A stretch of DNA of 64,000 bases from Litoreibacter meonggei (lineage in GTDB: Bacteria; Pseudomonadota; Alphaproteobacteria; Rhodobacterales; Rhodobacteraceae), in the NCBI RefSeq assembly GCF_003663885.1, contig NZ_RCCE01000009.1, positions 1 through 64,000 on the forward strand, read 5' to 3'. The stretch's first letter is position 1. Each line of letters begins with the position of its first letter. Both the position numbers and the translations under genes were made by a program. The notes below the pieces were generated by a model. The model was not told where the DNA came from, did not search any database, and was given only the letters and a program-made list of their open reading frames with translations. Shown here in pieces: positions 478 through 24,910 of the stretch.

Positions 478-2616
478 CTAAGCGGCGGAAACCGATACAC
501 CCCCCTGCCCTTCTCCACCCATTTCGGATTCCATCAGCGATAAGGCATCGTCAGCGTCTTGCATGGCAACCATGTTTTCCTCCGTAGCTTCGACTTGATC
601 GGGGAACTGCAACTTCTGTTGTTCCGCAAGATCAAGCTGGCCTTGTCGATCCTCAAAGTCTTTAGTCGCTTTTGCAATCGTCTTCGCTTTGCGACTTGAA
701 GTCTTGACCTGCGCCCTTTCTGGCAAGTTGTTAGCCAATCCAATAGACGCAGCATCCGTATCCAAGCTGGCCCCAACACTGTCAGTTTCATTGGGACTTT
801 TACCTTCGTTGCTCTCTTCTGGCTCGTCCTGTTGCCCAACCGCGGATCCACCTTCCGGCATTGGCTCTTGCCCTGCAACAGGCCGATCCATTGGGCTTTC
901 AGATGTTGCAACAGGTGCAGCCGGTCCCGCCGCCGCCTGCTCAGACAAAGGCGTTGAAGCAATCTCCTTTTCTGGAAACGGTAAGTCGCCCTTCTGTGCA
1001 CCGTGGATCGCTTTGAAAAATGGATCATCGAAATACTGGATGCGCTTGGCTCTGATTGGCATTTGAGCATCAACAACAATAATGACTTCATCAAGCGGGA
1101 GGCGTCGAGCTTCGTCCTCCGGCAACAATGAAGTTTCTTCAGTACGTTCGGACATGCTGCGCCCTTCAAACGGGTTTTTCCCGATTGAACGCGACCGTGT
1201 GACAACCCGCTTCGTTGTTTTACCTACCGCTTTGCTCAATTCCTCGACGGTCTTTTCATCCGATGGGGTCAGATACAATTTCACACCTGCGTTGCCCTGT
1301 AACGCGCGTCTGGTGTTTTCGCCGTATATCTCGTCTAAAGCTGGGATCGTCTGCGTAACGATAGCCAAGTGTCCTCGATACGACCGCAACGTCTCAATGC
1401 TGTCAGTGACAATAGGCATTTTGCCAAGCCGATTGAACTCATCGAGCATAATCATAACCGGCCACGGTTCATCAGCGCCCGGTTCTTTGTCTTGCATGGA
1501 TGAGATCAGGTCTGAAAAGAACAAGCGGATCAATGGCGCCAGAGGCTTCACCATGTTGGGCGAAACAACCAGAAAAACAGAAAACGGTTTCTTTCGGATG
1601 GTGCGAAAATCGAAGTCTGAAACCTGTGTTGCCTTGTCGATCGCTGGGTTGCTCCACTGATCCAAACCAGACGTCATAAGCAGCGATACGTAGGACGTCA
1701 GCGTGTCGTTGTTCGTTGAGGCCAGCCGCTCCATGATCAATTTAGCTGCACGGTTCGTGACTTCATCCCTGCGGTCCATGAACTCTTTTTGCTTGTTACC
1801 GCCGCTGGCCGTGATCCTGTAAATCTCGCCCAAAGTGGGATTGCCCCGTTGGAAGGCCAAAAGGCCGGCTGCTACGAACAGATCAATACCGCCCTTCAAC
1901 AGACCTTGAACGCGGTCGCTATCAGCCTGCAAGAAAAGAGTAGCAAGTAACTGTAGCTCCATCTGTTGACGGTCGGGATCTTCCAATTCCGCGATGCGCA
2001 GCAAGGGATTATATCTGTGGCTGCGTCGGTCATGCCAGTCTGTCGGTGCGAAACGGTAAACCTCGTCACCCTGGGCCGCTCGATGCCGCGCAGTTGCTTC
2101 AAAGTTTTCGCCTTTAACGTCCAGCACAACGGCTGATCCTTTGAAAGTCAGTAGATTGGGGATTACAAAGCCGGTTGTTTTACCCCGACCCGTTGGGGCG
2201 ACGATCAAAGCATGTGGAAAAACTTTCGAGCTGATGAGTTTACCGTTGCCCTTCGCCTTCCCCAGCTTGCCAATAATGAAGCCTTGGCCGGGTTTATTGA
2301 AAAACCCGTTCTTCTTCATATGCGTCGATGTCTGCCACACAGTCTTACCAAACTTGGTCAAGGCGTTCCCTGACAAGACGGCACTCAATAGCAGACCAGC
2401 AAGTCCGAAACCGCCGACAATGAGGTTCACCAAGCGAACATCATCTGGTCGATATTGCTGTAAGCCACGGTAGTTTTGAGCCAACCACATGAAGTCCAAA
2501 TCGGCATTCATGCCAAAGTCTCGGAACGTCAAAAACGCTGTAGCGATTACGTAGCCGATGGCGAGAAACAGCAGGGTCAGCAGGACGATGCCTGTCGCGA
2601 TTTTGCCCTTATCCAT
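478..2616 (-). CDS. virD4: Type IV secretion coupling protein VirD4/TraG
   Basis: The 712-aa coupling ATPase brings the relaxase-bound T-strand to the VirB channel at the inner membrane. Two N-terminal membrane segments (about residues 7-30 and 62-83) precede the soluble ATPase. Walker A is APTGRGKTT at about 140-148 and Walker B is VMIMLDEFNRLG near 385-396. Both are typical of VirD4/TraG. The last ~160 residues are a polar, Glu/Ala/Ser-rich extension of low complexity, which is longer than in Ti VirD4. The start codon overlaps the 3' end of the relaxase gene by 8 nt, so mobC-virD2-virD4 reads as one operon transcribed away from the candidate oriT. A terminator follows the stop codon. Confidence 0.93.
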   Translation of the reverse strand: MDKGKIATGIVLLTLLFLAIGYVIATAFLTFRDFGMNADLDFMWLAQNYRGLQQYRPDDVRLVNLIVGGFGLAGLLLSAVLSGNALTKFGKTVWQTSTHMKKNGFFNKPGQGFIIGKLGKAKGNGKLISSKVFPHALIVAPTGRGKTTGFVIPNLLTFKGSAVVLDVKGENFEATARHRAAQGDEVYRFAPTDWHDRRSHRYNPLLRIAELEDPDRQQMELQLLATLFLQADSDRVQGLLKGGIDLFVAAGLLAFQRGNPTLGEIYRITASGGNKQKEFMDRRDEVTNRAAKLIMERLASTNNDTLTSYVSLLMTSGLDQWSNPAIDKATQVSDFDFRTIRKKPFSVFLVVSPNMVKPLAPLIRLFFSDLISSMQDKEPGADEPWPVMIMLDEFNRLGKMPIVTDSIETLRSYRGHLAIVTQTIPALDEIYGENTRRALQGNAGVKLYLTPSDEKTVEELSKAVGKTTKRVVTRSRSIGKNPFEGRSMSERTEETSLLPEDEARRLPLDEVIIVVDAQMPIRAKRIQYFDDPFFKAIHGAQKGDLPFPEKEIASTPLSEQAAAGPAAPVATSESPMDRPVAGQEPMPEGGSAVGQQDEPEESNEGKSPNETDSVGASLDTDAASIGLANNLPERAQVKTSSRKAKTIAKATKDFEDRQGQLDLAEQQKLQFPDQVEATEENMVAMQDADDALSLMESEMGGEGQGGVSVSAA

Positions 2617-5338
2617 GAGTCTGACCCTTCTCTGTGTTGGCGTGAACCTGCTTCAACCTTATGGCGTCATATTCCTCGTCGTTGATTTCAGAAATGACCT
2701 CGCGTGTGGCTTCGCTATTGGCGGTTGCCTCGTCAGATTGCAGGTAGGCTTTCGCGGCGTACAGACGGTCAAGACGGTTATCAATGACCTCTGAAAGCGC
2801 GTCTGCATCACCTTTCTTGAGCGCTTCTAGTTGTTCATCATTCAACTCGCGTTCAACATCGTCACGGAAGGTATGTTCGCCACCAAATTGGTCGAATGGT
2901 CCGTCGATCTTTTCGACTTTCTCATGTTCAATAACGCGGCGCATTTCGGCGCTTTCGACTTGATCGGTACGATACGGCCTAACTGCGTTGTCGAACTCAC
3001 GAAGCCGCTCCAGCTCGAATTTCTGACTGGCTTCGCTATACGCTTCATGGTCTTCATGCTCATGTTCTCGAAACTCGCGCGTATCTTGACGCAAAAGCGC
3101 AGAACGCATCATGTCGCCATACTGATCCGCCGTGTCTTTTAGATATTCGTCGGTGCGCTGCCGTTCTTCGAGTGACATTGCTCCATCGTTTCGGTCTTTG
3201 GCGAGTGTCGTAAATGCCTCTCCCATTGCCACGCCGTCAATCTTTCCACCTGCTTGATTGCGCTCGAAACCAAGCCGTTCAAATCGTGCGTAGTCGCTCG
3301 TCGGGTTTTCGTACTGCTCAATGACACCACGGTCGATTTGCTGGGCGGTAGTTTCATTGTCGTTTCGAACTGCAACAGTATCGCGTTGTCCTTCAACAAA
3401 ACCGTTCGGCTTGTCCAAATCAGTGCCAAGTTTATCCCATGCCCTTGACGCAAGTTGCGCATGCGCTGATGACTTTGCGGCGAAGGCTTCAAACTGCACC
3501 TCTCGGTCTTGCTGCAATTTTGCGTCGTTCTCTGATCCATCCAGAAATTCGCCAGTTTGGGTAAGATCATTCTCCAACGCTTCAAATTCTCGGCGATCCT
3601 GACGGCTCATTCCGATCAATTCGGGGTTTTCATCAATGCGCTGCTCGGCCCGATCCGTCATTTCAACGGTGTAGCCTCCAATGACAGAGGCAGGCATACC
3701 GGCACGTTCCATAGACTTCATATTTTGTTTGAAGGCGTCCGATACGGCTTCTTCACGCCCAGCCTTCGCAATACCTTCAATCTCGGCCCGCTCGGCCCCA
3801 GCTTCGGCCCTAAGTTGGTCGGCAATGTCATTGCGATAGTCTTCGTCTGCTGCATTTTCCATCATGCTTGCAAATTCTTCGTCAGATGGGCGCTCTTGAT
3901 CATCGCTGTAGACAATCCCATCATCTTTAAGCACTTCGGCCCTCTCAAGTGTCTCACCCAACCGAACATGTGCTGCGTCCAGTTTTTGTGCGGCAACAGC
4001 CAAGTCCTCCTGCCGTTCAAGATTCAACCCGTCTTCCTTGGCAATCTTGGATAAATCGTCTGCAATCCAACGCTGCTCAAGTGACGCATTGCTGGCCCCC
4101 TGCTCTACCCTCGCAATGATCGCAGATGACGAAATACCGGTTCCACGCAATGCTGTCTCAATCTGTGCCCGTGTTTCCGGTTCTTTCATTGCGCCAACAC
4201 CCTCTTTGTTGATGTTGGTTTCCGAGTAGACGCCAGTATCAGACGGCGCATCGTTCAACGTCTGTGAACGCACGCCCATGGGCTGCATGTGGGCTACATT
4301 CCGGTAAATCTGATCCAACTGCTTTTCGTATAGCGCTTTCATGCTGTCTGGCGCATCGCGCACAAACTGCTCAACCCGCTCTGCCCGGTCTGAAAAGCGG
4401 CCACGAAGATCGTCAAAGGATTCTTGGTTCGCCATGTAAATCTCTCCATCTTGTTCAAGTTTGCCGCCTGCCGCGAGTATTTCACCCGCGCGAAACAACG
4501 CGTTTGCAATGTCTTCGCGGTTCTCGTCGTTGGCCTCAGCCGCCAATGAACGATATGCTTTCGCTGTGGTCGCAATTTCGGCTAACGCGCGGTCCAGGTC
4601 GCGACCGACCCTTTCACGCTGAACCGGCTCACGGTCCTCTTTTTTCGCTTCGTAAATTTCTTTTGTGCGTGGGGCATAAGTTGTGTCGCCACGATCCACG
4701 CGCTTGGTAGCTTCAAGCCTCACACCAACCTTTTCAGCTTCCTCAACCATCGCTGTACGGAAGTCGTCGTAGTTAAAGTGGTGGTCCCGCCCCAGATAGA
4801 AGAACTCGCCCTCTTGGGACTTGCGGTTAATGACTATGTGGGCGTGTGGATGATCCCGGTCTTCGTGGATCGCGATGATGTAGTCAAAATTGCGCTCGTC
4901 ATTCGCGAAAAACCGTTCGCTTACCGCTGCGGATATGTCCCGCACATCTTCGCCTGTAGTCCCTTTTGGATAAGACATGAGCAAATGTGTTGTATGACCC
5001 ATCTTTGGCCGGAAACCTTCACTCCAACGTCCAGAAAAGCGATCAACAACGCTCTTGATTTCATCAGCATTCAACTGCCGTTTACCGTCAAGAACTCCTC
5101 GGCCATCTACGATATGAGAGGATTTCGTTGTCAGGTATTCGAGTTGATTGGTCAGCTCTTTCTTTGTCTGGCATCCACCTGACCGGACTGGCTTGAAAAC
5201 CGCTGATCTGTGGCCCTTGGCTGCGCGGACCATTTGTGGCCGCTTTTGACCAAGGCCCTGCATCGACCCACGGACCTTGCTCCATCCCTCGCGGAAAATC
5301 TCACCAGTAACGGCGCTGACTGCATCATTCCTCGCCAT
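2609..5338 (-). CDS. virD2: VirD2-type relaxase (MOBP-like)
   Basis: The 909-aa relaxase nicks oriT and pilots the T-strand into the recipient. The first ~220 residues follow VirD2 closely: TNQLEYLT with the likely catalytic Tyr68, THLLMSYPKGT near 117, and the metal-binding HEDRDHPHAHIVIN near 158-171, then FNYDDFR. The N-terminal ~50 residues before the first motif are a basic extension. The remaining ~650 residues are highly charged, rich in Glu/Arg/Gln and probably alpha-helical, with no recognised domain; this tail is much longer than in VirD2 (about 440 aa in total). It overlaps mobC upstream by 14 nt and virD4 downstream by 8 nt. Identification as VirD2-family is firm from the motifs; the role of the long tail is unknown. 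Confidence 0.92.
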   Translation of the reverse strand: MARNDAVSAVTGEIFREGWSKVRGSMQGLGQKRPQMVRAAKGHRSAVFKPVRSGGCQTKKELTNQLEYLTTKSSHIVDGRGVLDGKRQLNADEIKSVVDRFSGRWSEGFRPKMGHTTHLLMSYPKGTTGEDVRDISAAVSERFFANDERNFDYIIAIHEDRDHPHAHIVINRKSQEGEFFYLGRDHHFNYDDFRTAMVEEAEKVGVRLEATKRVDRGDTTYAPRTKEIYEAKKEDREPVQRERVGRDLDRALAEIATTAKAYRSLAAEANDENREDIANALFRAGEILAAGGKLEQDGEIYMANQESFDDLRGRFSDRAERVEQFVRDAPDSMKALYEKQLDQIYRNVAHMQPMGVRSQTLNDAPSDTGVYSETNINKEGVGAMKEPETRAQIETALRGTGISSSAIIARVEQGASNASLEQRWIADDLSKIAKEDGLNLERQEDLAVAAQKLDAAHVRLGETLERAEVLKDDGIVYSDDQERPSDEEFASMMENAADEDYRNDIADQLRAEAGAERAEIEGIAKAGREEAVSDAFKQNMKSMERAGMPASVIGGYTVEMTDRAEQRIDENPELIGMSRQDRREFEALENDLTQTGEFLDGSENDAKLQQDREVQFEAFAAKSSAHAQLASRAWDKLGTDLDKPNGFVEGQRDTVAVRNDNETTAQQIDRGVIEQYENPTSDYARFERLGFERNQAGGKIDGVAMGEAFTTLAKDRNDGAMSLEERQRTDEYLKDTADQYGDMMRSALLRQDTREFREHEHEDHEAYSEASQKFELERLREFDNAVRPYRTDQVESAEMRRVIEHEKVEKIDGPFDQFGGEHTFRDDVERELNDEQLEALKKGDADALSEVIDNRLDRLYAAKAYLQSDEATANSEATREVISEINDEEYDAIRLKQVHANTEKGQTHG

Positions 5339-5900
5339 CGACCAACTCCTTCATGGCTTCGTTGACCAAAATACTGATCCCGTCAGTTCTGCGGCGGGTC
5401 AAAAGATCAACTTGGTCTGCGAAGTCCAACACGAACCCAGCGAGGCTACGCATCTGACCCAAACTTGATGGACCAAATGACGGCCTCATTCCCTTGTTGT
5501 TCGCCTCGTTCATCCTTTTTGCGATCTGCGTCACGTTGTTGCCGACGCGATTTAGGGCTGCGCGAAAGGCTTTGAGCTCATCGGCAAGATGTTCGTCAGG
5601 CTGAAAAACGCCATTCGCAGCTTGGATCAAACGCCGCATACCGTCAGATCGGCTGGTGATGCCGTGCCGTCCAAGCAACGCCTCAAAGTCGCGCAATTCC
5701 TCGGGTGTGACTGTTGTTCCAATCTGAGCGGTTCGTATGCCGCTATCGCGTTTTCGCAACTTTTCGCGGCGGACGGTGTACTGGATTGTTCTCGGCGTAA
5801 CGCCGAAACGCTTCCCAAGGACCTGAGCCGAAACGCCTTTGCGCGTTTCACGGACGATTTCCAATCGCTCCAAATCAGATAAGCGTCGGCGGCCAGCCAT
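5325..5900 (-). CDS. mobC: MobC/VirD1-like relaxosome accessory protein
   Basis: A 191-aa basic protein. Residues ~5-45 look like a helix-turn-helix (LERLEIVRETRKGVSAQVLG followed by GVTPRTIQYTVRR). The C-terminal half carries the MobC-like signature LNRVGNNVTQIAKRMNEANN near residues 120-140. Such proteins bind oriT and help the relaxase open and nick DNA. I place the start at the ATG at 5900; a GTG at 5912 is in frame but overlaps the AGGGAG ribosome-binding sequence, which is better spaced for 5900. It is first in the mobC-virD2-virD4 operon. A candidate nic site lies 17-28 bp upstream and an AT-rich dyad 48-98 bp upstream, so both autoregulation and plasmid-wide control are plausible. Confidence 0.82.
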   Translation of the reverse strand: MAGRRRLSDLERLEIVRETRKGVSAQVLGKRFGVTPRTIQYTVRREKLRKRDSGIRTAQIGTTVTPEELRDFEALLGRHGITSRSDGMRRLIQAANGVFQPDEHLADELKAFRAALNRVGNNVTQIAKRMNEANNKGMRPSFGPSSLGQMRSLAGFVLDFADQVDLLTRRRTDGISILVNEAMKELVDGEE

Positions 5901-5916
5901 GCGAACATACACTCCC

Positions 5917-5928
5917 TATTTCCTGCCA
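5917..5928 (+). other. oriT: Candidate nic site (oriT core), Ti-border-like
   Basis: The plus strand reads TATTTCCTGCCA. The Ti T-DNA border on its nicked strand reads TATATCCTG^CCA and the RP4 nic site reads CTATCCTG^CCC, so only one base differs from the border core. By analogy the nick falls after G5925. It lies directly upstream of mobC-virD2, next to virC1/virC2-like genes, where such an origin belongs. A nick here would send the plus strand rightwards, so the 6-28 kb segment would enter the recipient first and virB/virD last. Motif match is seen; function is inference. Confidence 0.55.
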
Positions 5929-5947
5929 CCTTCCATACAATCACTTA

Positions 5948-5998
5948 GACTTCGACACAATTATAAAGTTGCACCGCTATCATAATATTGTCGAAGTC
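5948..5998. promoter_or_regulatory. AT-rich dyad site 1 upstream of mobC
   Basis: Inverted arms GACTTCGACACAATTAT (5948-5964) and ATAATATTGTCGAAGTC (5982-5998) flank a 17-nt spacer. The inner part matches the ACAATATTATAA-type element found at five other loci in this window, here extended by a TCGA-containing outer arm. It sits between the candidate nic site and the ACA-rich tract and could control the mobC operon or form part of oriT. Confidence 0.6.
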
Positions 5999-6264
5999 GT
6001 TAAAAGTGAATTGTATTCAATTTCAGACCGAACCCTTGGGTGAGGTCGTGTCGAGCCAAAGGCGAGACCGGCCCAGAACCGTAGGTGTCGGCCCAAGCCG
6101 AAAATGCGCCGCCTCGCGGCCCATAAGCACTTTAGGCCCCTGCCCTACCAAAATCACCGAGAATGCCTGCTGTGGCCGCGCTCCTGCCCCCTCGCGCCGT
6201 ATATCAGCACATTGCGCGCCCTCGATTGCACCTCGTCGGCATTATTTGGGCTTTGCGTTCCAAC

Positions 6265-6540
6265 AGCACACGAAACACAGAACAAGCAACACGATACGTA
6301 ATTATTCTAATTCTCAAGACACAAGCAACAAGGCGCACTCGACACAATACAAGAAACACTGCGCAAGTCACAAGCGACACTCAACCAAAGACACCGAACA
6401 CGTAACAACACTCAAAATACCCACTACAAGCGACACAATACCCGATACAAAACACCGCACACGATACACGCCACACACGACACAACACCGCACACTAGAC
6501 AAGGAACACTTGACACAATACCTATGACAAGCGACAACGA
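6265..6540. other. ACA-rich, G- and T-poor tract between candidate oriT and virC1
   Basis: For about 275 bp the plus strand is dominated by ACA, CACA and GACACAA units (the minus strand is TGT-rich) with few G or T bases. Irregular repeats such as GACACAATAC and ACAAGCGACA recur. It is not a plausible coding region: strand composition, not codon periodicity, explains the open frames. The stretch 6000-6265 before it is ordinary sequence with no gene I can support. Ti overdrive, bound by VirC1/VirC2, is a TGTTTGT-type element next to the border, so an expanded overdrive-like or partition site is one reading (inference). Confidence 0.6.
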
Positions 6541-6584
6541 ACCAAATGCAAAGAACGCCGGACAAGATACAGGGAACAGGATAC

Positions 6585-7298
6585 ATGCCAAACGAAAATA
6601 TGAAGGTGATAGCGATCATGACGCGGAAAGGTGGGGCAGGAAAAACCACCCTGACCCGCGCATTGGTCAGCGCCGCAATGTCACGTGGAAAACGCTGCCT
6701 TGTGTTTGACGCCGACCCGCAACAAGCATTGGCACGTTGGGCGAACAAGCTAAAGATCAGTGACCCTTTGTTCTCAATCGAACCTTTAACTGTTGTAAAA
6801 GACTTGTCCGAGAAAACGGACGCCGCATATGAAAACGATACTGCCGATTACATCTTCATCGACACAATCGGGGCGGCGGGCGCTTGGGCGGATGATCTGG
6901 CCGCTGAAAGTGATGCCGTCGTAGTCCCGATGATGCTCAGTGATGACGATCTTGAAATCACTACCGACACGTTCAACTGGTACGTTGGATTGCGGGAACG
7001 AGCCGAAGACCCCGATGCGCTACCATCATTTCATGTTGTGCTGTCAAACGTGCCAGCAAAACAAAGCAAGGCCGAACTAGAAGTCGAACGCCAAGCAGTA
7101 TCACAATTTCCGGTCATGGAAGATTATTTTATGCAACGGAAACAACACAAGGACGCGTCAGCTGAGGGATTTATCCATCAAATCGCAATAGACCGTCGCA
7201 ACAGTGAAAAGCCCTTGATGCGTGTCCATGCAAAACACTTTGATGAGGCCCTTGAAGAAGCAACGTCCATCTTGGATGCGCTGACGGAGGCGAGCTAA
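6585..7298 (+). CDS. virC1: VirC1-like ParA-family ATPase
   Basis: A 237-aa MinD/ParA-type ATPase. A deviant Walker A, RKGGAGKTTLTRA, lies near residue 14; FDADPQQALARW, AAYEN and a Walker B-like DYIFIDTIGAAG follow, then VVVPMMLSDDDLE. This order and wording resemble Agrobacterium VirC1, which promotes T-strand formation and recruits the relaxosome to the cell pole, more than a large-plasmid ParA. I choose ATG 6585, preceded by AGGATA; an ATG at 6546 in frame has no ribosome-binding site. It overlaps the next gene by one base (TAATG), so both are co-translated. Placement beside mobC/virD2 supports a transfer role, but a partition role cannot be excluded, because no other parA is visible in the window. 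Confidence 0.8.
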   Translation: MPNENMKVIAIMTRKGGAGKTTLTRALVSAAMSRGKRCLVFDADPQQALARWANKLKISDPLFSIEPLTVVKDLSEKTDAAYENDTADYIFIDTIGAAGAWADDLAAESDAVVVPMMLSDDDLEITTDTFNWYVGLRERAEDPDALPSFHVVLSNVPAKQSKAELEVERQAVSQFPVMEDYFMQRKQHKDASAEGFIHQIAIDRRNSEKPLMRVHAKHFDEALEEATSILDALTEAS

Positions 7299-7900
7299 TG
7301 CCGCGTAAAAAGAGAACCGCCATCAAAGGCTCAGATCCGGCGTACACATCGGATTTTTCGCAGCCTTTACCGACACACAAGGTTGCAGAGCAAGCAGAAC
7401 CGATACCTTCACCAAAAGTGCCTTCAACCCAGCCAGTCAAACCGCAAAAATCAGAACCAAAGGCAAAAGCTGAACCTGCATCAAAACCTACCCCCAAGCC
7501 TATCGTCAAAGCCGCTCAACCAGCGGCGAAACCAGACGTAGGCGAAAAGCGCGAAATAGCGTTGTCTGCGGCGGTAAAGGTCGAGCAAAACGAAAAGCTG
7601 ACCGCTTTGGAAGCCAAAGGAATTTCAGCCAAGGACGCCATAACATTGGCAGGCAGACGGGCCGTAGAACAATTTGAACCGAAGGCAGCTTTCGTAGAAA
7701 AAACCGACACGGAACGGATGCCAATGCGCCAAGGCTACAAAAGCACAAAACGCATACCAGCTGCGATGCTGGATCAACTCCGCCAAGAGCATGACCCTCT
7801 TGGCCTGTCATCTGACGGTGCAATGATGCGCGGTCAGTTTGAACCTCTGTTTTGGTCCTGCCTCGATGCTGTCATTGAAGAACTAAACAGCAAGTATTGA
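7298..7900 (+). CDS. virC2: VirC2-like / ParA-partner DNA-binding protein
   Basis: A 200-aa basic protein with a Pro/Lys/Ala-rich, probably disordered N-terminal half (residues ~25-85) and a compact C-terminal half with helical segments (ISAKDAITLAGRRAVEQF, then KSTKRIPAAMLDQLRQEHD). Size, order after a VirC1-like ATPase, and disordered-then-globular layout match VirC2, a ribbon-helix-helix protein of about 200 aa that binds overdrive. I do not see a ParB-type motif. Sequence identity to VirC2 cannot be judged by eye, so the alternative is a ParB-replacing centromere-binding partner. A strong hairpin follows the stop codon. Confidence 0.55.
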   Translation: MPRKKRTAIKGSDPAYTSDFSQPLPTHKVAEQAEPIPSPKVPSTQPVKPQKSEPKAKAEPASKPTPKPIVKAAQPAAKPDVGEKREIALSAAVKVEQNEKLTALEAKGISAKDAITLAGRRAVEQFEPKAAFVEKTDTERMPMRQGYKSTKRIPAAMLDQLRQEHDPLGLSSDGAMMRGQFEPLFWSCLDAVIEELNSKY

Positions 7901-7969: not shown

Positions 7970-7979
7970 GAAGCAAAAT

Positions 7980-8023
7980 AGACAGGGCCGTGTCCTCGCT
8001 ACGCTGCGGGCCGCACCAACCCT
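7980..8023 (+). repeat. 44-bp inverted repeat, left copy
   Basis: This 44-bp stretch (beginning AGACAGGGCCGTGTCC) is perfectly repeated in inverted orientation at 10209-10252, inside the ardC leader. It lies about 130 bp upstream of the small gene at 8154, in the same orientation to that gene as the other copy is to ardC. The pair brackets four genes. Confidence 0.9.
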
Positions 8024-8153
8024 GTCGATTTGGCTTCACCCCCATCCTCTCAAGCTCCGCGCATACTCAGGGAAAGCAGTCGCTTGCCCTTCCTCAATGG
8101 TTTTCAGATCAGGCCGGGAAAGTGCTGTTCTCAATCAATGCAAAGGGAAAACC

Positions 8154-8306
8154 ATGGCACGCAAAAAGAGACTTCATGCAGAACCTATCAAACGAATCTT
8201 AGACCGGAAAACGCGGGTGGTTGTAGGCTGGCTCTACAGATGGAACACTGGCGCTGAGGTGCCAATGTGGAAAGACGGCAAACGAACCGACGTGATCTAT
8301 GAGTAA
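8154..8306 (+). CDS. Small conserved protein, family duplicated in this plasmid (50 aa)
   Basis: A 50-aa basic protein of unknown function. It begins with a Lys/Arg cluster (ARKKR) followed by HAEPIKRILDRKTR, VVGWLYRWNTGAEVPMWK and DVIYE. A second copy at 42779-43003 shares the pattern HAEPIK-ILD--TR-VVGWLY-WNTGA-VPMWKDG----VIYE, which is strong evidence that both are expressed proteins. The ATG at 8154 follows AAAGGGAAAACC; a longer in-frame start at 8097 adds residues with no match in the paralogue. Its last codons overlap the next gene by 8 nt, suggesting coupled translation. Confidence 0.75.
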   Translation: MARKKRLHAEPIKRILDRKTRVVVGWLYRWNTGAEVPMWKDGKRTDVIYE

Positions 8307-9156: not shown

Positions 9157-10065
9157 TTACGCTGCCGCCTGCTCTTGGGATTTTGTGACCTCGGCGGCGT
9201 CCATGATAAAATCTACTGCCTTCTGCGCTTCTGACGCTGCTTTGAAAATCAAACCTTTGTCGTTTTTCAGGGCTTCAAGCCATCCCTCAACATAGGCCGC
9301 GCTTTGGTCAAAATCTGGCTCGATCCCAAGTTTCACGCCAAGGATGCAAGCGCCGATTTCGGCCACCAGTTCTTCAAACGCATAGGCTTTGCGGTCGTTG
9401 AATTTGCCAAGACGGTCCAACCGCTTCGTGCTGCCTGTCCAGTGGGTCAATTCATGGCCTAAAACTCCAAAATATCGAGCAGCATCAAAGAAGGTGGCTA
9501 TCGGCGGCATGTGAATCTGATCTGTTGACGGGCGATAATATGCGCGGGGTTCGCAGCTGGTCACAATATCGGCTCCGGTACTGGCGAAAAACGCTTCAAG
9601 TTCTGGGTCTGTTTCAGTTCCAAGATCGCGGGGCGGATCGGGCAAAACGTAAAACTCGGCTGGCAAGCCTTCGATCTGGTCGGCGTTAAAAACGTTGTTG
9701 CATTTTGCAAACGGGATGCGGGTTTTGCCTTCGCCTGTTTCGGCTGCGCTTTCGGTCTGGTCGCCTTCCTTCTCGAACGTGCCATAAAAGACAGAACGGG
9801 CGCATTTTGATCCCTTTTTGACGCTACCACCAAGGTCAACCGCCTGTTTGAAAGTCATCCACCTCTCTGATGAAAAATCGCTCATGTGTGCCGATGCCCA
9901 AAGCATCAAGATGTTAACGCCGCGATATGGTTCGCCGTTATGACGCAAGGGCAGGGCAGCGCTACCTGCGCCACCTGTCCACGGCTTACGCCAAGGTGGG
10001 GTGCCTGCTTCAATCTGCGCGATGATTGTGTCTGTGACGTGCTGGTGAATATCAATCTTAGCCAT
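9157..10065 (-). CDS. ardC: ArdC-like antirestriction protein, zincin metallopeptidase type
   Basis: A 302-aa protein. The N-terminal ssDNA-binding ArdC domain is visible at residues 1-110 (DTIIAQIEAGTPPWRKPW, YRGVNILMLW, ERWMTFKQAVDLGG, VKKGSK). The C-terminal half is a zincin-like peptidase with HELTHWTGS near residue 206, the HExxH metal site, and YAFEELVAEIGA as a second-helix glutamate motif. ArdC proteins protect incoming single-stranded plasmid DNA from host restriction and are typical leading-region genes. It is transcribed toward the candidate oriT, so the plus (transferred) strand is its template. An unusually long structured leader precedes it and a terminator follows. Confidence 0.9.
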   Translation of the reverse strand: MAKIDIHQHVTDTIIAQIEAGTPPWRKPWTGGAGSAALPLRHNGEPYRGVNILMLWASAHMSDFSSERWMTFKQAVDLGGSVKKGSKCARSVFYGTFEKEGDQTESAAETGEGKTRIPFAKCNNVFNADQIEGLPAEFYVLPDPPRDLGTETDPELEAFFASTGADIVTSCEPRAYYRPSTDQIHMPPIATFFDAARYFGVLGHELTHWTGSTKRLDRLGKFNDRKAYAFEELVAEIGACILGVKLGIEPDFDQSAAYVEGWLEALKNDKGLIFKAASEAQKAVDFIMDAAEVTKSQEQAAA

Positions 10066-10660
10066 GATCTGAATTTCCTTTGTGGTGGCACATTTGAGGC
10101 TTCGCGCCCCTTAATTGTGCGGGTTTTTGACCAAAGCCCTAAAAGGGCGTCGGCTCTAAAACTTGCCACGTGGCGAACGCGGTGGGGGGCGAGACAAGAT
10201 AAACTGATAGGGTTGGTGCGGCCCGCAGCGTAGCGAGGACACGGCCCTGTCTGTTTGTCTTGTCCGAGGGGGGAGGCCGCGCCTCCACCCTGACGCAACG
10301 CAGTGGCGTTCGGCTTGCCCGAACCCCAAGTAGCCAATGAAAACTTAGGGCCAAAGGCTCGTAGGGCAGGGGGTTATCCAGTGCCGGTTAGGGCGGCTAT
10401 GACCGCCTGAATCCCAAACCCCAGCATTCCCGTAAACGAAGACACCACACATCGAAGTGTCGGGATTGTGGGTAACGCGGCCTGCACAAGGCGAAGCGAA
10501 CGACCGTCACCCGCAGGGCAGATCGCCGAGGCCCAGGGCGGGCATGAGACAAAGGAAACGGGGCGGCTCGGAGAGACGGCCCGACGACTATTGGAACAGC
10601 TCGCATCGGGACGCGGTGTTCTGGTGGAAGCCACTTGCGGCTGGAACTAGGGCGCGGTGC
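10066..10660 (-). promoter_or_regulatory. Long structured leader A, upstream of ardC
   Basis: About 595 nt without a credible gene. Read on the minus strand it aligns in blocks with leader B at 23981-24420: CGTCCCGAT-CGAGCTG, the block CCGTCTCTCCGAGCC, GATCTGCCCTGCGGGT, the hairpin GTTCGGGCAAGCCGAAC, CTACGC---GCCCGCACC, the hairpin GCCCTTTTAGGGC (10136-10148), and a hairpin at 10088-10120 just upstream of the ribosome-binding site. That last hairpin shows compensating changes against copy B. A carries about 190 nt extra in the middle. Function unknown: structured RNA leader, attenuator or single-strand promoter. Confidence 0.6.
10209..10252 (-). repeat. 44-bp inverted repeat, right copy
   Basis: Perfect reverse complement of 7980-8023. 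It lies within leader A in the block corresponding to 24130-24170 in leader B, where the match is partial. The perfect identity to the left copy suggests recent duplication or gene conversion. Confidence 0.9.
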
Positions 10661-10715
10661 CCTGCCCATAGGGCGGGGCATGGGCCATCAAGATCAATCC
10701 TGAGTCTGCTTTACT

Positions 10716-11048
10716 TTAGGAATCCATTGGAAGGCTGACGAAATCACCTTCAATCATTGGAAAGGTGACTTTGGTGAAACCACAATCTTTCAAGAACGAA
10801 ACGATGCCCGTCACCGTCTTGAACTCGCGGACGGAAATTTGTCCTACAAGCCGTGAACGGGCAGTCACCAGCATTTGTGAAGACCCGTCTGGATGATGAG
10901 CCTCCATCGTCCAAAGCCCGTACCAAACTGACGCCTTACGTGTTGGCGACTGACAACATTTGATCATCAGAGTCGAACCTGTTTCAAGGCGCTGTTTTAA
11001 TGCGACTTCCGTTAACACGTTGGGCGTCGTGATTGATGTTTCGCGCAT
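10716..11048 (-). CDS. Hypothetical protein, paralogue of the first virB-operon ORF
   Basis: A 110-aa soluble protein of unknown function. It aligns with the 122-aa protein at 53270-53638: PNV-TE near the N-terminus, then KA-VWYG-W, LV-AR, VR-FKT--G--SFL---GF and PM-EG. The two copies on one plasmid, one at the head of the virB operon, suggest a transfer-related or regulatory role. I use ATG 11048; an in-frame TTG at 11060 is possible, and neither has a good ribosome-binding site. Upstream on the minus strand, TTGATACAATAACATATTACT may include promoter elements. Confidence 0.7.
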   Translation of the reverse strand: MRETSITTPNVLTEVALKQRLETGSTLMIKCCQSPTRKASVWYGLWTMEAHHPDGSSQMLVTARSRLVGQISVREFKTVTGIVSFLKDCGFTKVTFPMIEGDFVSLPMDS

Positions 11049-11120: not shown

Positions 11121-11180
11121 GGGGCTGTCTGCCCCCGCGCCGATGGCGCTCCCCCGAGGATTTTTGGGGGAAGATGAATG
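11121..11180. repeat. 60-bp repeat, copy 1 (hairpin GGGGGC/GCCCCC)
   Basis: 58 of 60 bases match 24851-24910. It begins with a 6-bp stem GGGGGC-TGTCT-GCCCCC and ends TTTTTGGGGGAAGATGAATG. Both copies are open in the same frame and would encode APAPMALPRGFL, but the surrounding frames differ, so I read it as an interspersed non-coding element. I recall similar CCCCCGAGGATTTTT-type sequences between genes in other Rhodobacteraceae, from memory and unchecked. Confidence 0.8.
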
Positions 11181-11290
11181 GGAAAGATCAAATGATTGAC
11201 CGAAAATCCTATGTGATCAACGCAATCAAGCTGCAACGTCAAGTGTAAGCAACCTTGACAGGCTGGTGCAATTCAGCGGAAAGAAGAAAA

Positions 11291-11305
11291 GAACAATACA
11301 AGAAC
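11291..11305 (+). promoter_or_regulatory. LexA (SOS) box of the umuDC operon
   Basis: GAAC-AATACAA-GAAC (GAAC, 7 nt, GAAC) is the reverse complement of the alphaproteobacterial LexA consensus GTTC-N7-GTTC. It lies 14 bp upstream of the chosen umuD start and would place umuDC under the host LexA. Confidence 0.85.
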
Positions 11306-11319
11306 ATAGGGGATGTTGG

Positions 11320-11754
11320 ATGCCTGTTTTTCCGGTGGAAACACCTGTCGTTGCAAATGGTATGCCCCTTCGTATGGTCACAACACCAGCGAGTGCAGGA
11401 TTTCCATCCCCTGCGGGGGATGATTTGGAAGACGAAATAGACCCCATTTCATGGGTCGTTCGGCACCCTTCATCGACGTTTTGGTGGCGTGTCGAAGGTG
11501 ATTGCCTTTGGGACGCTGGAATCCGTGACGGTGATCTGATCGCCGTTGATCGCGCTGGAAAGCGCAGGATCGGACGGGCGGTCCTTGCCGTTGTGGAAGG
11601 GGCAGTGACTGCCAAAATCCTGCGTAAACGGGATGGGCAATATTTTCTGGCCCCGGCAAATGGCCGCGAAAAATTCCCTGATATTGAGCTGACCGAGGAT
11701 AGCGAGATTTGGGGTGTCATTGCAGGTGTGGTGCGGCGGTATGATCTGGAATGA
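11320..11754 (+). CDS. umuD: UmuD-like S24 peptidase, Cys in place of catalytic Ser
   Basis: A 144-aa protein in the size range of UmuD (139 aa in E. coli). The autocleavage region [11 protein letters not shown] corresponds to CGFPSPAAD, with an Ala-Gly bond. The usual catalytic motif GDSM is here GDCL (codon TGC, about residue 68), so the nucleophile would be cysteine; the partner lysine is kept in VTAKIL. The C-terminal fold motif IWGVIAGVV is present. ATG 11320 is preceded by AGGGGAT, while an earlier in-frame ATG at 11266 would lie upstream of the SOS box. It overlaps umuC by ATGA. With UmuC it forms error-prone DNA polymerase V, induced by DNA damage. Confidence 0.88.
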
Positions 11755-13022
11755 AGCGTCCTATCGCAATTTCCGATAGCGCCAATTTCTACGTCTCTGC
11801 CGAAAGGATCTTTGACCCGGCGTTGAAAAACGTGCCGGTGATCGTCTTGTCTAACAATGACGGGTGTGCCGTCGCTCGATCCGATGAAGCGAAGGCGCTA
11901 GGGATCAAGATGGGCGAGCCGCTGCATCTGTTGCGCGACAAGATCAAAGCGCATGGCGTGAAGGTCTTTAGCTCGAACTATACGCTCTATGGCGACATTA
12001 GCCGTCGCGTGGTCGAGGTTTACGAAGACTTCACGCCCAATGTGGAAATTTACTCAATAGATGAATGTTTCTTGGACTTTGGCGGGTTCAAGGATCGCAC
12101 CGAACATGCCCGCGCAATGCGGCGCGAGGTATTGAAGCGCATCGGCGTGCCAGTGCGCGTCGGGATCGCGCCGACAAAGACGTTGGCGAAGTGCGCAAAT
12201 GACATTGCAAAGAAGAATCCGATATTCGCTGGGGTTCTGGATATGATGGACGACACATTGGCCGATTGGCTTCTGCCAATGGTGCCTGTTGGCGACATTT
12301 GGGGGATTGGGCGCAAAACTGACGCGAAACTGCGTCAGCTTGGTATCCGAACAGCGTCAGACCTTCGCGCCATGCCGTTAAGGCAGGCGCGGGCGGTCGG
12401 GACAGTGGTGTTGGAGCGCACGGTTCTGGAACTGCAAGGCGAGCCTTGTCTTGCTTTCGATGATGTAGAACCGCAGCGCAAAGGTATGGCTGTCACCCGC
12501 TCGGCGGGTCAGCCTATGACGGATTTCGACACGGTGTTTCAGGCGGTGTCGGCGCATGTGACCCGCGCAGCGGAAAAACTGCGCCAGCATGGGCTCGTCG
12601 CGGGAGCGCTGACCGTATTTTTCCATACCAACCGGCATCGCAAGGACCGGCCTCAATACGCGGGCAGTCGGTCCACGCGGATCATGCCAATGTCCTGCGA
12701 TACATTCGAGTTGGTGCGAGCGGCGCGGCGGTGTGCAGACGCCGCCTGGCCGAAAGGGAAGACGGCGAAATACGGGTTCACCAAAGCAGGTGTCATGCTC
12801 GATGATCTACTGCCCATCGAGGACCGCCCGCGAACACTCTTTGATGCCCCACGCAGCAAAAACGGTGACGCGATGCGGGCGCTCGATCTGATCAATGATC
12901 GGTTTGGGAAAAAGACCATGGTGTTGGCGAGTGAGGGCATGAAGCGGCCTTGGCAGCTCAGGGCGGATCATCGCAGCCCGCGCTACACAACGCGGCTGTC
13001 AGACCTACCGATTGTCCGGTGA
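11751..13022 (+). CDS. umuC: UmuC, Y-family DNA polymerase V catalytic subunit
   Basis: 423 aa, full length. The palm motifs are clear: [13 protein letters not shown] near the N-terminus, [20 protein letters not shown] (residues ~35-54), [10 protein letters not shown], and the catalytic [13 protein letters not shown] near residues 98-110. The helix-hairpin-helix [12 protein letters not shown] lies near residue 184, and the DUF4113-like C-terminus includes [17 protein letters not shown]. It overlaps umuD by 4 nt. Plasmid-borne umuDC operons give translesion synthesis and help a plasmid survive damage or single-strand entry. Unlike many leading-region genes here it is on the plus strand. Confidence 0.95.
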
Positions 13023-13330: not shown

Positions 13331-13593
13331 TAGGTGGTGGGTGATAAGCCACTAAATGGTGGGTGATAAGCCAGCATTTAGTGTGTCACAAGCCAGTGCC
13401 TTGCTTCTAAAGAGAAACTGGTTCTCTCATGCCTTGAGGTGGGTGATAAGCCAGCAAAAATTGACAAAAAGGTGGGTGATAAGCCAATGGATTGACTTGG
13501 TGGGCGATAAGCCACTAGCGTGTGATAAGCCAGTGAAGTATAGAATCGGTGGGTGATAGGCCAGTGCAATGACGACGGTGGGTGATAAGCCAG
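13331..13593 (+). repeat. oriV: Iteron array, probable origin of replication (oriV)
   Basis: Direct repeats of GGTGGGTGATAAGCCA and close variants occur at about 13335, 13358, 13438, 13471, 13499, 13518, 13547 and 13577, with a degenerate copy near 13381. Spacing is irregular, from about 20 to 80 bp. The last copy lies within the first codons of repA. An AT-rich stretch at 13250-13320 (TTATATATGTGTTAATATATGG) just upstream is a candidate unwinding region. Nothing else is apparent in 13023-13330. Iterons before an RPA-type repA are the standard layout of such replicons. Confidence 0.88.
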
Positions 13594-21681: not shown

Positions 21682-23520
21682 TCAAACCATACCTTCGGGC
21701 AACCAAGCTGCGATGCGAGACTCTTGCGTCTCCGTGACGCCAAGGGCCTTACGTGTTGCCTCGTCGCCGAACAGCTTTTCTAACTTTGCAGCCTTCTCGC
21801 CTTTTTTCAAAGTCGCGAACGATTTGGCTGCGTCGTGGTTCTCGGACAGGTTCAACAGGTCGTTCCACAACTCGATCATGTAGGGACCACCAACCCGCAT
21901 GAAAAAGTTCTCTGCTGTTGGTGTGAAGTGATCCCGTGTGACCTTCTTGGTCTTCTGGTCGATCATGTCTGCAAGATCAGCGTCGGAAATTGATAGCTGG
22001 CCGATAATTTTCCGCACCAACATATCCATGCACTTCTTATGCCCACGTTTGCGGAACGCTGCGAAGTCCTCGGCCTCGTTGCCTTTGCTCTCAATCGGAT
22101 CGGGCAGGGTCAATCGTTTGTCTTGGGCATATCCTGTCTCCGTCTCTGGCACATTAGACAGGTAGGGCAGGGACACGTCATAGGCATGAATGCGGCGGTA
22201 TCCCTGCGATTGCGTCAATTGGTAGGCCAGTAGATCAAGGGCAAGCGTCGGGTCGTCCAGTAGGGCGTTTTGACGTGCGCCTACAACCACACGGGTAAGG
22301 TCTTCTTGCAACTTGGCAGAAATCGGCGACTTCTTCGCTGTCTCTTTGTGGGCGGATTTTTTCAACACACCCGCCTCAATAGCGGCGGCTTGATCCTCAA
22401 CGCGCACAAGTCCTTCGATCAATTCAACCCGTCCGTTGAAGTCCACATACATGATCATGCCTGCATGGGTCATTTGCTCGTCTGTGAACGCGCCTTTGAT
22501 CTTCGCCTTCAACTCCGCATATTCAGCGATGCCAGCATCATCGCAAGCGTCACCCTCAACCAATTCGCTCAATTCGTTGAAGCGGTCATTTTCTTCCTCG
22601 GTCAAAACGCCTTCGACCTTGTAGAGCCGCGCCAGCTTCATCCGCTCAATGGTGTCATAATAGACGCCATCGTCCATCAACGCTTCGCCCCATTTCCAAC
22701 CGTTGTGTTCTGCAAGCTGCGCCGCCGTATCCGCTAGTTTCGCTTCAAAACAATCCTGCAAAATGGTCGGATCATCAAAGAGCGTTTCATTTTCGAACAG
22801 GTCGCCACCGATGCGACCCCCTGCGGCTTTATATTCCTCAACACCCACGAAAACGGCGCGACGGTCAGTGCCTTTCACATGGTCAGGTTTCAACGCTTCC
22901 TTGATCTGGTGATCGGACATAGCCCCCCAGCCTTTGGTGCCACGGGATTTAACGACCTCCAGCACTTCAAGGGTCAGCTTTGCATCATTGCTGATAGTGA
23001 ACGCCTTAGCTTGGGACAGGCTGATTTCGGTGGCTTTCAATGCGTCCAGCACTGCGTCGTCAAGGCCAGCAAGAGCCAAGCGGCGATACACTTTTTTCTC
23101 CGTCACACCGTAGGCCACTGCAATCTGACATGCGTTCATGCCTGTTTTTGACAAGGTGCCATAATCACGAATTTCATCGGCGGGGTGCAAGTCTTGGCGC
23201 TGCGCGTTTTCACTGGTCGCCCATAATTTCGCGGTGTCTTCGTCGGCTGCAAGCTGCACCTGCACGTTCTGAAAGCGTGGATCGTCCTGCAACAGCGCAA
23301 GGGCGCGGTAACGCCGCCCACCAGCAACAACGCCAACCCCCTCGGTCCCATCGTGACGGAACCCTGCAAGGTTGTGGATTAAGCCAGCAATTTTGATGTT
23401 CTCGGAAAGGGATGCGATTTCATCATCTGAAACCACTGTGCGGGGGTTAAACGGGGAAACGTATAGATCAGCAAAGGCCACGGTTTCTGTGATCTGCGGG
23501 ACTGTTGTTTGATCGGTCAT
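21682..23520 (-). CDS. ParB/Srx-domain protein (612 aa)
   Basis: The N-terminal 100 residues form a ParB-like domain: YVSPFNPRTV, IASLSENIKIAGLIHNL and VVAGGRRYRALALL. A helix-turn-helix follows (ACQIAVAYGVTEKKVYRRLALAGL) near residues 130-165. The remaining ~400 residues are helical and charged with no recognised domain. Proteins of this build are common on alphaproteobacterial plasmids next to ArdC and DUF3768 and belong to the leading-region repertoire; I do not think it is the partition ParB, because no parA adjoins it. CAAGGATAG precedes the ATG, a leader also seen before repC. DUF3768 lies 61 bp upstream in the same operon. Confidence 0.85.
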   Translation of the reverse strand: MTDQTTVPQITETVAFADLYVSPFNPRTVVSDDEIASLSENIKIAGLIHNLAGFRHDGTEGVGVVAGGRRYRALALLQDDPRFQNVQVQLAADEDTAKLWATSENAQRQDLHPADEIRDYGTLSKTGMNACQIAVAYGVTEKKVYRRLALAGLDDAVLDALKATEISLSQAKAFTISNDAKLTLEVLEVVKSRGTKGWGAMSDHQIKEALKPDHVKGTDRRAVFVGVEEYKAAGGRIGGDLFENETLFDDPTILQDCFEAKLADTAAQLAEHNGWKWGEALMDDGVYYDTIERMKLARLYKVEGVLTEEENDRFNELSELVEGDACDDAGIAEYAELKAKIKGAFTDEQMTHAGMIMYVDFNGRVELIEGLVRVEDQAAAIEAGVLKKSAHKETAKKSPISAKLQEDLTRVVVGARQNALLDDPTLALDLLAYQLTQSQGYRRIHAYDVSLPYLSNVPETETGYAQDKRLTLPDPIESKGNEAEDFAAFRKRGHKKCMDMLVRKIIGQLSISDADLADMIDQKTKKVTRDHFTPTAENFFMRVGGPYMIELWNDLLNLSENHDAAKSFATLKKGEKAAKLEKLFGDEATRKALGVTETQESRIAAWLPEGMV

Positions 23521-23581
23521 TTTTCTATCCTTGATGTGGTGATGAATTGAGGGGAACGCCCTGCACGGGCGCTCCTGATTT

Positions 23582-23980
23582 TCAGTAGTCAGAGGGGAAA
23601 AGGATGGTCATAACCCGCTTGGTTTGGTCCAAGTCTGTCGGGTCTTCTGCACCATATTCGAGGTTCAAATCGTAAAGGTCGATCTTGAACCAGATGGTTT
23701 TTGTGTCACTGGCGATGGTGATTTCCACTGCCCCAAAGCTGTGATCGCCGTATGGGTCATTATCTTCGGTGAAGTCGTCAAAGTGCTGGATCGCCTGCAT
23801 CATCTGCGCCATCCAAGCGGGGCTAAGTGCTGCAACGGCCTGCGTCATGACGATCTGGCCAGATATTGTAAAATCCGCCCCCCAAGTATTGCGAAAACGG
23901 TCATTATGTTCCGCAATCGTCTTTGCTCGCTCGGCTGCGGTGTAGTCTTCTTCTGGAATTGAAAGCTGTTCAAAAGCCAT
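23582..23980 (-). CDS. DUF3768 family protein
   Basis: 132 aa. The family pattern is visible from IAEHNDRFRNTWG through MTQAVAALSP, HFDDFTEDNDPYGDHSFGAV, TIWFKIDLYDLNLEYGAEDP and RVMTILFPSDY. The function of DUF3768 is unknown; members are small soluble proteins on alphaproteobacterial plasmids, often near ArdC and ParB-like genes, as here. AAAGGAACC precedes the ATG. It is the first gene of the operon after leader B, which is homologous to the ardC leader. Confidence 0.88.
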   Translation of the reverse strand: MAFEQLSIPEEDYTAAERAKTIAEHNDRFRNTWGADFTISGQIVMTQAVAALSPAWMAQMMQAIQHFDDFTEDNDPYGDHSFGAVEITIASDTKTIWFKIDLYDLNLEYGAEDPTDLDQTKRVMTILFPSDY

Positions 23981-24420
23981 TTTATCGGTTCCTTTGTGGT
24001 GCCACCGTCTGAGACTTTGTGCCTCTTAATGGTGCTGGTTTTGAGCAAAGCCCTAAAAGGGCGTCGTCTCTAAAACCTGCCATGTGGCCGAACAGGGTCG
24101 GGGAATTTGGAACGGAAAATCAACAAGGTAGGTGCGGGCAGAAGGCGTAGCCGACAACTCGGCCTTGTCTATTTTCTGTGTAAAAAGGGGCAGGAACAGG
24201 CCCCATTCTTTCTGCCCGAAGCGGCGTTCGGCTTGCCCGAACCCCAAGGGATGCACCATGCAATCGTTACCCGCAGGGCAGATCGGCGCGGCCCAGGGCG
24301 AGCATGACCAAAGGAGGGGGTACGGCTCGGAGAGACGGGCGACTGACTATTGGATCAGCTCGTATCGGGACGTGACGTTCTGGTGAAGCCGCGTGCCGGC
24401 TGAATTAGTGCGCGGTGACA
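23981..24420 (-). promoter_or_regulatory. Long structured leader B, upstream of DUF3768-parB
   Basis: Homologous to leader A before ardC, about 450 nt, same orientation to its gene. It shares the blocks listed for A, including the hairpins GTTCGGGCAAGCCGAAC and GCCCTTTTAGGGC. The hairpin closest to the ribosome-binding site (24001-24035) keeps its pairing although bases differ: outer pair C-G here versus A-T in A, inner pairs A-U and G-U here versus G-U and G-C in A. That argues for a selected structure. Confidence 0.6.
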
Positions 24421-24495
24421 CGGCCAAAGGCCGGGTCAGGGGCCCAACATCACTACACCCACAAATCAAACCAAACGTTCGAACTTAGTGAAAAA

Positions 24496-24850: not shown

Positions 24851-24910
24851 GGGGCTGTTTGCCCCCGCGCCGATGGCGCTCCCCCGAGGATTTTTGAGGG
24901 AAGATGAATG
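24851..24910. repeat. 60-bp repeat, copy 2
   Basis: Differs from 11121-11180 at 2 of 60 positions. It follows the end of the broken gene by 9 bp, where its GC hairpin could act in transcript termination. Confidence 0.8.

What the first reader, a model, noticed from the sequence alone, without database searches (positions are those of the whole stretch)
10066..10660. Two homologous long leaders with covarying hairpins before ardC and DUF3768-parB: candidate ssDNA promoters or structured RNA
Leaders A (10066-10660) and B (23981-24420) align in ordered blocks over about 450 nt, are non-coding, and sit in the same orientation before leading-region genes. The hairpin next to each ribosome-binding site keeps its base pairs by compensating changes, and two more hairpins are identical. 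Established work shows that leading-region genes of F-like plasmids use folded single-strand promoters in repeated copies. These elements fit that role for an alphaproteobacterial plasmid, or a new regulatory RNA class.
Basis: partly seen in the sequence, partly recalled or inferred. Interest (0 to 1): 0.8.

Follow-up and report, generated by a model that had tools for sequence, protein, structure and literature searches.

The report
Probable start-site hairpin on single-stranded DNA
The two repeated leaders on this plasmid each carry a folded single-strand DNA hairpin that recurs in conjugative plasmids, integrative elements, a rolling-circle plasmid and single-stranded DNA phages of Proteobacteria, so it is probably a shared start site for copying newly arrived single-stranded DNA, placed just before genes that may protect that DNA.

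Summary
The repeat is real: leaders A and B match in two blocks (81% over 194 nt, 74% over 266 nt). The claimed compensatory changes in the hairpin beside the ribosome-binding site are not there.

Each leader holds a ~64-nt core (10195-10258, 24111-24176); a third copy (7974-8037) has the opposite orientation. It is a hairpin family with an outer stem of free, covarying sequence, a small fixed hairpin, a hairpin of varying length and the strand GAGGAC[A/T]CGG. An 86-nt query around it matches 221 PLSDB plasmids. It also occurs in Tn4371-like elements, a 1.9-kb rolling-circle plasmid and 14 inovirus or microvirus records. In 14 of 14 the same hairpin strand is the one that codes the phage marker genes. 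In the window that strand is the inferred transferred strand.

Best reading: a host-recognised single-strand initiation (complementary-strand priming) site about 130-210 nt before ardC, DUF3768-parB or DUF932-parB genes. A direct ssDNA-promoter role is possible, but no -35/-10 signal was found and F and ColIb stretches give no match. Function is inferred; nothing was tested at the bench.

The parts
10195..10258 (+). core hairpin A (folded strand given): outer stem, TTGG, hairpin TGCG-GCC-CGCA, inner hairpin GC-GTA-GC, GAGGACACGG
   Evidence: covariance model R1, 72.8 bits, E 1.7e-16; it is a training row of R1, so it matches by construction
24111..24176 (+). core hairpin B, diverged: outer stem kept with other letters, central hairpin TGCG/CGCA broken
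   Evidence: R1 40.1 bits, E 4.7e-8; training row; 79.7% identical to copy C over 59 nt
7974..8037 (-). core hairpin C, folded strand is minus, opposite to A and B; after the gene 7298-7900 that follows virC1
   Evidence: R1 75.1 bits, E 4.1e-17; training row; 96% identical to A over 51 nt
10505..10696 (-). leader block 1, copy A; its plus strand folds as one long imperfect hairpin
24265..24452 (-). leader block 1, copy B
10075..10330 (-). leader block 2, copy A, contains core A; the ardC start lies just below it
23989..24248 (-). leader block 2, copy B, contains core B; the DUF3768 start lies just below it
11121..11180 (-). 60-nt inverted-repeat-rich block T, copy A
   Evidence: 97% identical to copy B; related copies on contig C7 and in other plasmids
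24851..24910 (-). block T, copy B
9157..10065 (-). ardC (ArdcN + MPTase-PolyVal) behind leader A
   Evidence: Pfam
23582..23980 (-). DUF3768 gene behind leader B
   Evidence: Pfam
21682..23520 (-). ParB-like gene after DUF3768
   Evidence: Pfam HTH_ParB above and ParB_N just under the cut-off (26.2 against 26.3)
2609..5338 (-). VirD2-type relaxase; with the HTH gene 5325-5912 it borders the presumed oriT
   Evidence: Pfam Relaxase
5913..6545 (.). region presumed to hold oriT (not shown; no clear nick motif found)
   Evidence: inference from gene order

Best explanation
The core of each leader is a single-strand initiation site (complementary-strand origin). When the plasmid enters a recipient as single-stranded DNA, the plus strand (inferred T-strand) folds at 10195-10258 and 24111-24176 into a branched hairpin. 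A host factor common to Proteobacteria (DnaG with SSB, a PriA primosome or RNA polymerase; not identified) recognises it and starts a chain that runs leftwards through ardC, or DUF3768-parB. This makes those genes double-stranded and expressible early, or transcribes them directly. Shown by computation: homology, covarying stem, better folding of one strand, presence in ssDNA phages and a rolling-circle plasmid with that strand on the phage-marker or rep coding strand, and a place upstream of leading-region-type genes. Inferred: priming, the host factor, early expression, and that plus is the T-strand.
For: 2) Structure: outer-stem positions 1-8 are Watson-Crick in 65-91 of 93 sequences with many pair types, and the inner hairpin changes length while pairing. 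On 24 rows 94.6% of cells pair and 43 cells are two-sided changes, both reached by 0 of 500 shuffles; slid versions pair 34-49%. 3) ssDNA replicons: 2 named Rhizobium microviruses, 12 IMG/VR contigs with inovirus or microvirus marker proteins, and a 1876-nt plasmid whose one annotated gene is a Rep_1 initiator. By marker genes the folded strand is the coding strand in 14 of 14. 4) DNA folding is more stable on that strand in 86 of 94 cores and 11 of 11 block-1 copies. 5) Of 118 elements of the genome scan, 74 lie 182-208 nt before DUF932 on the same strand, 4 before ParB, 3 before ArdC. 6) In a Tn4371-family ICE the oriT is the traF-traI gap (PMC11448139, passages); in the similar element of L245 the hairpin and DUF932-parB point to that gap from the side away from the relaxase, as ardC points to the relaxase side here.
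Against: No experiment. Loop letters are fixed partly because the search patterns demanded them; outside the pattern, 14 of 15 rows of A7 keep GTGTCCTCG and 13 of 15 TGCGGGCCGC (two of the 15 came from the pattern scan). Two of the five measures do not stand out: pairs with a two-sided change (48 of 500 shuffles) and further pair types (112 of 500). The A.C over G.T asymmetry is 29 to 7 in 93 sequences but 6 to 2 (P 0.14) in 44 thinned ones. By total ORF length 11 of the 12 phage contigs agree on the strand, L185 does not, and several of the 14 records are near relatives. No R1 match in the phiX174, G4, ColE1, F, R388 and ColIb stretches. Copy C has the opposite orientation. B is diverged, and it lies beyond the umuDC-like pair and the replication gene, so its place in the leading region is less sure. 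Two tailed-phage contigs carry the element (L026, L170). oriT was not located. 35 of 118 elements have none of the five query genes behind them.
Confidence: 0.65

Rival explanations
1. Single-strand promoter working like Frpo: RNA polymerase binds the folded T-strand and makes the ardC and DUF3768-parB messengers directly; priming is a by-product or absent.
For: Place upstream of leading-region-type genes on their coding strand; F and ColIb leading regions also hold ParB-like genes, F also DUF932; Frpo is described as a single-strand promoter that allows early expression, and the title of its first report names both transcription and primer synthesis (PMC11541004, passages).
Against: No -35/-10 enrichment (mean 6.36 of 12 against 6.08 shuffled; 4 of 44 reach 9); the outer stem letters are free; in the 14 phage records no marker gene is coded downstream in that direction; no similarity to the F or ColIb stretches.
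Confidence: 0.22
2. Structured RNA leader (regulatory RNA) of the ardC and DUF3768 messengers.
For: RNA folds of block 2 have z -3.5 and -2.5; a further hairpin GTTTTAGAG...CTCAAAAC below the core seems to vary in a paired way in A7, by eye.
Against: The opposite strand folds better as DNA; the core occurs in phages and a rolling-circle plasmid without such a gene behind it; no Rfam family reaches its threshold in the stretches scanned.
Confidence: 0.06
3. A nicking or recombination site (double-strand origin, second oriT, Xer or integron-type site) folded from a single strand.
For: Such sites also use one folded strand, and inoviruses and plasmids share recombinases and HUH nucleases (recalled).
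Against: The same core occurs beside different initiator families (Phage_CRI, phrog_702, phrog_942, Rep_1, a plasmid replication protein), so it is not matched to one nuclease; no nuclease assay or site search was made.
Confidence: 0.05

Closest known systems
ssi/PAS and G4-type complementary-strand origins (phiX174, G4, ColE1)
   Same: sites at which host enzymes start the second strand on single-stranded DNA (PMC5714925, passages)
   Different: no R1 match in the phiX174 2150-2500, G4 3700-4300 and ColE1 sequences; no HMM match in the first two
Frpo / ssi promoters of F and ColIb-P9
   Same: repeated, upstream of anti-defence and ParB-like genes, folded T-strand (here inferred)
   Different: no sequence match in the stretches fetched, no -35/-10 enrichment, occurs in ssDNA phages and in alpha-, beta- and gammaproteobacterial records
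sso of rolling-circle plasmids (pT181) and of ICEBs1
   Same: the core lies in a 1.9-kb Rep_1 plasmid, folded strand on the rep coding strand
   Different: known sso types were not compared here by sequence; ICEBs1 known from a listing only
CUP elements of pKM101 (recalled, not fetched)
   Same: repeated leaders of leading-region operons (recall)
   Different: recalled as repressor-controlled duplex promoters; not tested

Membership tests
Frpo (F-type single-strand promoter) | sequence similarity to known Frpo/ssi | tested here: not met
   R1: no match in F 45-67 kb, R388 and ColIb 20-69.9 kb at E 10; leaders A, B and C against the same give only pieces of at most 30 nt, best E 0.15. The published Frpo sequences were not at hand as such; that they lie in these stretches is recalled
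Frpo (F-type single-strand promoter) | -35 and -10 elements in the folded stem | tested here: not met
   for the core and the 45 nt behind it; block 1 was not scored
Frpo (F-type single-strand promoter) | leading region, T-strand folded, upstream of early genes | tested here: inconclusive
   placement and strand fit; oriT not mapped, B beyond umuDC
single-strand initiation site (functional class) | present on the exposed strand of ssDNA replicons | tested here: met
   14 of 14 phage records by marker genes, 1 rolling-circle plasmid; coding strand = virion strand is taken from general knowledge
single-strand initiation site (functional class) | restores complementary-strand synthesis to an origin-less ssDNA phage | not testable with these tools
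   needs a plaque assay
phiX174-type PAS | similarity to the phiX174 or ColE1 sites | tested here: not met
   that these stretches hold the sites is recalled
G4-type primase origin | similarity to the G4 origin | tested here: not met
   origin annotated in the record
IncQ (RSF1010) ssi | similarity to RSF1010 ssi sites and a RepB'-type primase | not tested
   no RSF1010 record under the two accessions tried
Rfam RNA families | match at gathering score | tested here: not met
   window and L009, L011, L012; permissive scans gave only rows far under their thresholds

The most novel reading that the evidence does not exclude
A single-strand DNA hairpin family shared by conjugative plasmids, Tn4371-type ICEs, rolling-circle plasmids, inoviruses and microviruses is a common proteobacterial docking site for a host initiator; conjugative elements use it both to prime the incoming strand and to switch on anti-restriction and ParB-like genes straight from single-stranded DNA, a second, Frpo-independent route of zygotic induction.
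Probability: 0.3. Interest if true: 0.92.

Novelty: new variant of a known kind. Interest (0 to 1): 0.8.

Why it matters
How conjugative elements outside the F and IncI groups convert and express their incoming strand is poorly known (my judgement). A hairpin of one architecture in leading regions and in ssDNA phages gives a defined 64-nt object for that question: it can be put in an origin-less phage or deleted from a plasmid or ICE and scored. A covariance model of it (R1) could also point to leading regions, and so to anti-defence genes, where searches with known Frpo sequences find nothing.

Tried and rejected
RNA class: dropped as first choice because of phage occurrence and better folding of the other strand. 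Compensatory changes beside the ribosome-binding site: checked, not found. Rfam: gathering and permissive scans gave nothing of weight. Similarity to phiX174, G4, ColE1, F, R388 and ColIb stretches: none. Nick motif YATCCTGY (recalled) near the presumed oriT: scattered matches, none decisive. Wobble asymmetry: strong on 93 sequences, weak after thinning. Block 1: 29 G.T to 5 A.C on the folded strand, but that structure was predicted on that strand; on pairs with at least 6 strictly paired rows it is 9 to 5, so the energy difference is the better evidence. Viral scan: 49 contigs, 23 with an outer-stem score of 8 or more, L025 with 6; the other 25 were treated as chance matches. In one search, 5 of 148 hits were dropped (2 by parsing, 3 for short flanks) and duplicates merged to 93; one likely false hit (L098) stayed in. 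Alignment A4 has 46 rows thinned by 90% identity; A5 has 24 chosen rows, leaving out variants with an extra stem pair, which the aligner misplaces.

Full report
What is there. The window is a conjugative-type plasmid: coupling protein 478-2616, VirD2-type relaxase 2609-5338 and an HTH gene 5325-5912 on the minus strand, VirC1-like gene 6546-7298 on plus, ardC 9157-10065 minus, an S24 peptidase and Y-family polymerase pair 11266-13022 plus, replication protein 13569-14624 plus, ParB-like and DUF3768 genes 21682-23980 minus. It lies on contig C9 of a 3.95-Mb assembly. The two leaders are homologous in two blocks far beyond chance. The changes at the ribosome-binding-site hairpin are one-sided.

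The core. Searching PLSDB with leader A brought 142 records, not only roseobacter plasmids but Citrobacter, Pseudomonas, Klebsiella and Aeromonas plasmids by the name counts; of these only one Pseudomonas row was printed, with a 41-nt match. A search with 86 nt around that stretch matched 221 records; in the 60 rows printed the beta- and gammaproteobacterial matches are 37-43 nt at 89-97% identity. The arms that flank it differ and pair: TCAAGGGG/CCCCTTGA, GCGCAGGG/CCCTGCGC, GCGCCAGG/CCTGGCGC, AGACAGGG/CCCTGTCG, GGGGTGGC/GCCACCCC. The inner hairpin changes length and stays paired: GCtgcGC, GGCtgcGCC, GCCCttcGGGC, GGTGCaaGCACC. An extra stem pair appears with its partner: of 146 hits scored, duplicates included, 13 have C before CCGN with G opposite, 124 have G with A, 9 are other combinations. 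On 24 rows 94.6% of cells pair and 43 cells are two-sided changes, neither reached in 500 shuffles; two weaker measures are reached by 48 and 112 of 500. The letters of the loops are fixed in part by the search patterns; in A7, where 13 of 15 rows did not come from the pattern scan, 14 of 15 keep GTGTCCTCG and 13 of 15 TGCGGGCCGC, leader B being the exception in both and L205 in the second.

Where it occurs. With model R1: 5 copies in the own genome (3 on this contig, 2 on C7), 33 of 295 genomes of the family, 12 of 398 of the phylum, the last two with stricter filters. So it is an accessory feature. Viral contigs: 49 stretches for the looser pattern, 23 with a good outer stem. Twelve of those carry inovirus markers (Zot, pIV or replication proteins: L028, L029, L030, L032, L177, L185, L189) or microvirus-type markers (major head, pilot or phrog_942 replication protein: L163, L168, L172, L183, L190) (L030 by BLAST to L029, L032, L185 and L189). 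Two carry tailed-phage proteins (L026, L170). Nine have the stem type of the Tn4371-like records and were not checked protein by protein. Two named Rhizobium microviruses hold it between annotated genes, and so does a 1876-nt E. coli plasmid whose only annotated gene is a Rep_1 initiator. The phages were not searched for primase genes.

Which strand. By marker genes the strand here called folded is the coding strand in all 14 phage records, and it is the rep-coding strand in the small plasmid. L185 is the weakest case: Zot and pIV agree but total ORF length does not. Several of the 14 look like near relatives (L163, L168, L172; L021, L022), so the independent number is smaller. As DNA the folded strand is more stable in 86 of 94 cores (7 the other way, 1 equal) and in 11 of 11 block-1 copies, there by 13 kcal/mol on average. 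In the window that strand is plus for A and B. With the relaxase genes to the left, and leading-region genes pointing towards oriT as in ColIb, plus is the expected transferred strand. In ColIb the order umuDC, leading genes, nikAB (oriT just before nikA, recalled) is the mirror of umuDC, ardC, relaxase here. Leader B lies on the far side of umuDC, outside that mirrored stretch; PMC11541004 describes umu genes as a boundary of many leading-region islands (passages). In a Tn4371-family ICE oriT is the traF-traI gap (PMC11448139, passages); in the similar element of L245 (judged by its gene content) the hairpin, DUF932 and parB point to the gap between the S26 peptidase, which I take as traF, and the relaxase. 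That the relaxase side typically enters last is from PMC11541004 (passages).

Placement. Of 118 elements in the 117 genome stretches, 74 have a DUF932 match starting 182-208 nt downstream on the same strand, 4 a ParB match, 3 an ArdC match (144, 172 and 204 nt), 35 none of the five queries, 2 too little sequence. The 74 are largely one lineage of elements by their stems, so they are not independent. In the window the distances from core to start codon are about 130 nt for both leaders.

Block 1 is a second, separate element found so far in Rhodobacterales: it also stands apart from the core (L020 4561-4749, L230 2621-2809), and its plus strand folds into a long imperfect hairpin. It may be the better candidate for a single-strand promoter; it was not tested further. 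Block 2 holds the core and more hairpins.

Mechanism. The common denominator of ssDNA phages, a rolling-circle plasmid and conjugative elements is a single strand that must be primed; the review PMC5714925 (passages) describes ssi and sso sites so, using host machinery. A free stem with conserved loops suggests a protein reading the loops, with the caveat above. The chain started at A would run through ardC, so ardC would be double-stranded early. ArdC expression is needed in the recipient for R388 transfer to Pseudomonas putida (PMC7213743, opening of the abstract), which would make early expression useful; R388 itself has no R1 match. Whether the first chain is also the messenger cannot be told here. 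Copy C, opposite in orientation to A and so also in L020, L103, L110, L228 and L230, would act on the other strand, perhaps in vegetative lagging-strand synthesis (inference).

Comparison and novelty. The phiX174, G4, ColE1, F, R388 and ColIb stretches give no match. Frpo surveys in print started from BLAST with five known Frpo/ssi sequences, plus candidates sought by promoter consensus and fold in selected islands (PMC11541004 and PMC12826799, passages); they would not be expected to find this family. None of the titles and abstract openings listed in paper searches describes it; the library is open access only and some lists were cut. Rfam. IncQ ssi and known sso classes were not compared, so prior description remains possible.

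Noticed in passing
window 11121-11180 and 24851-24910: 60-nt block of inverted repeats, 97% identical, upstream of both units; related copies on contig C7 and in several roseobacter plasmids.
   Followed up: partly
window 10716-11048 (-): Small ORF of about 110 codons without Pfam match between block T and leader A; an annotated gene of similar size and place precedes block 1 in Yoonia (L230 8644-8982). Homology was not tested.
   Followed up: no
window 10331-10504: About 174 nt present in leader A but not in B between the two blocks.
   Followed up: no
L026, L170: Two tailed dsDNA phage contigs carry the core hairpin, unexpected for a complementary-strand origin.
   Followed up: partly
window 6200-6560: CA-rich, repetitive stretch before virC1, possibly part of the oriT region.
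   Followed up: no
window 8175-8278 and 42872-42975: Direct repeat of 104 nt at 76% identity, perhaps two related small genes.
   Followed up: no
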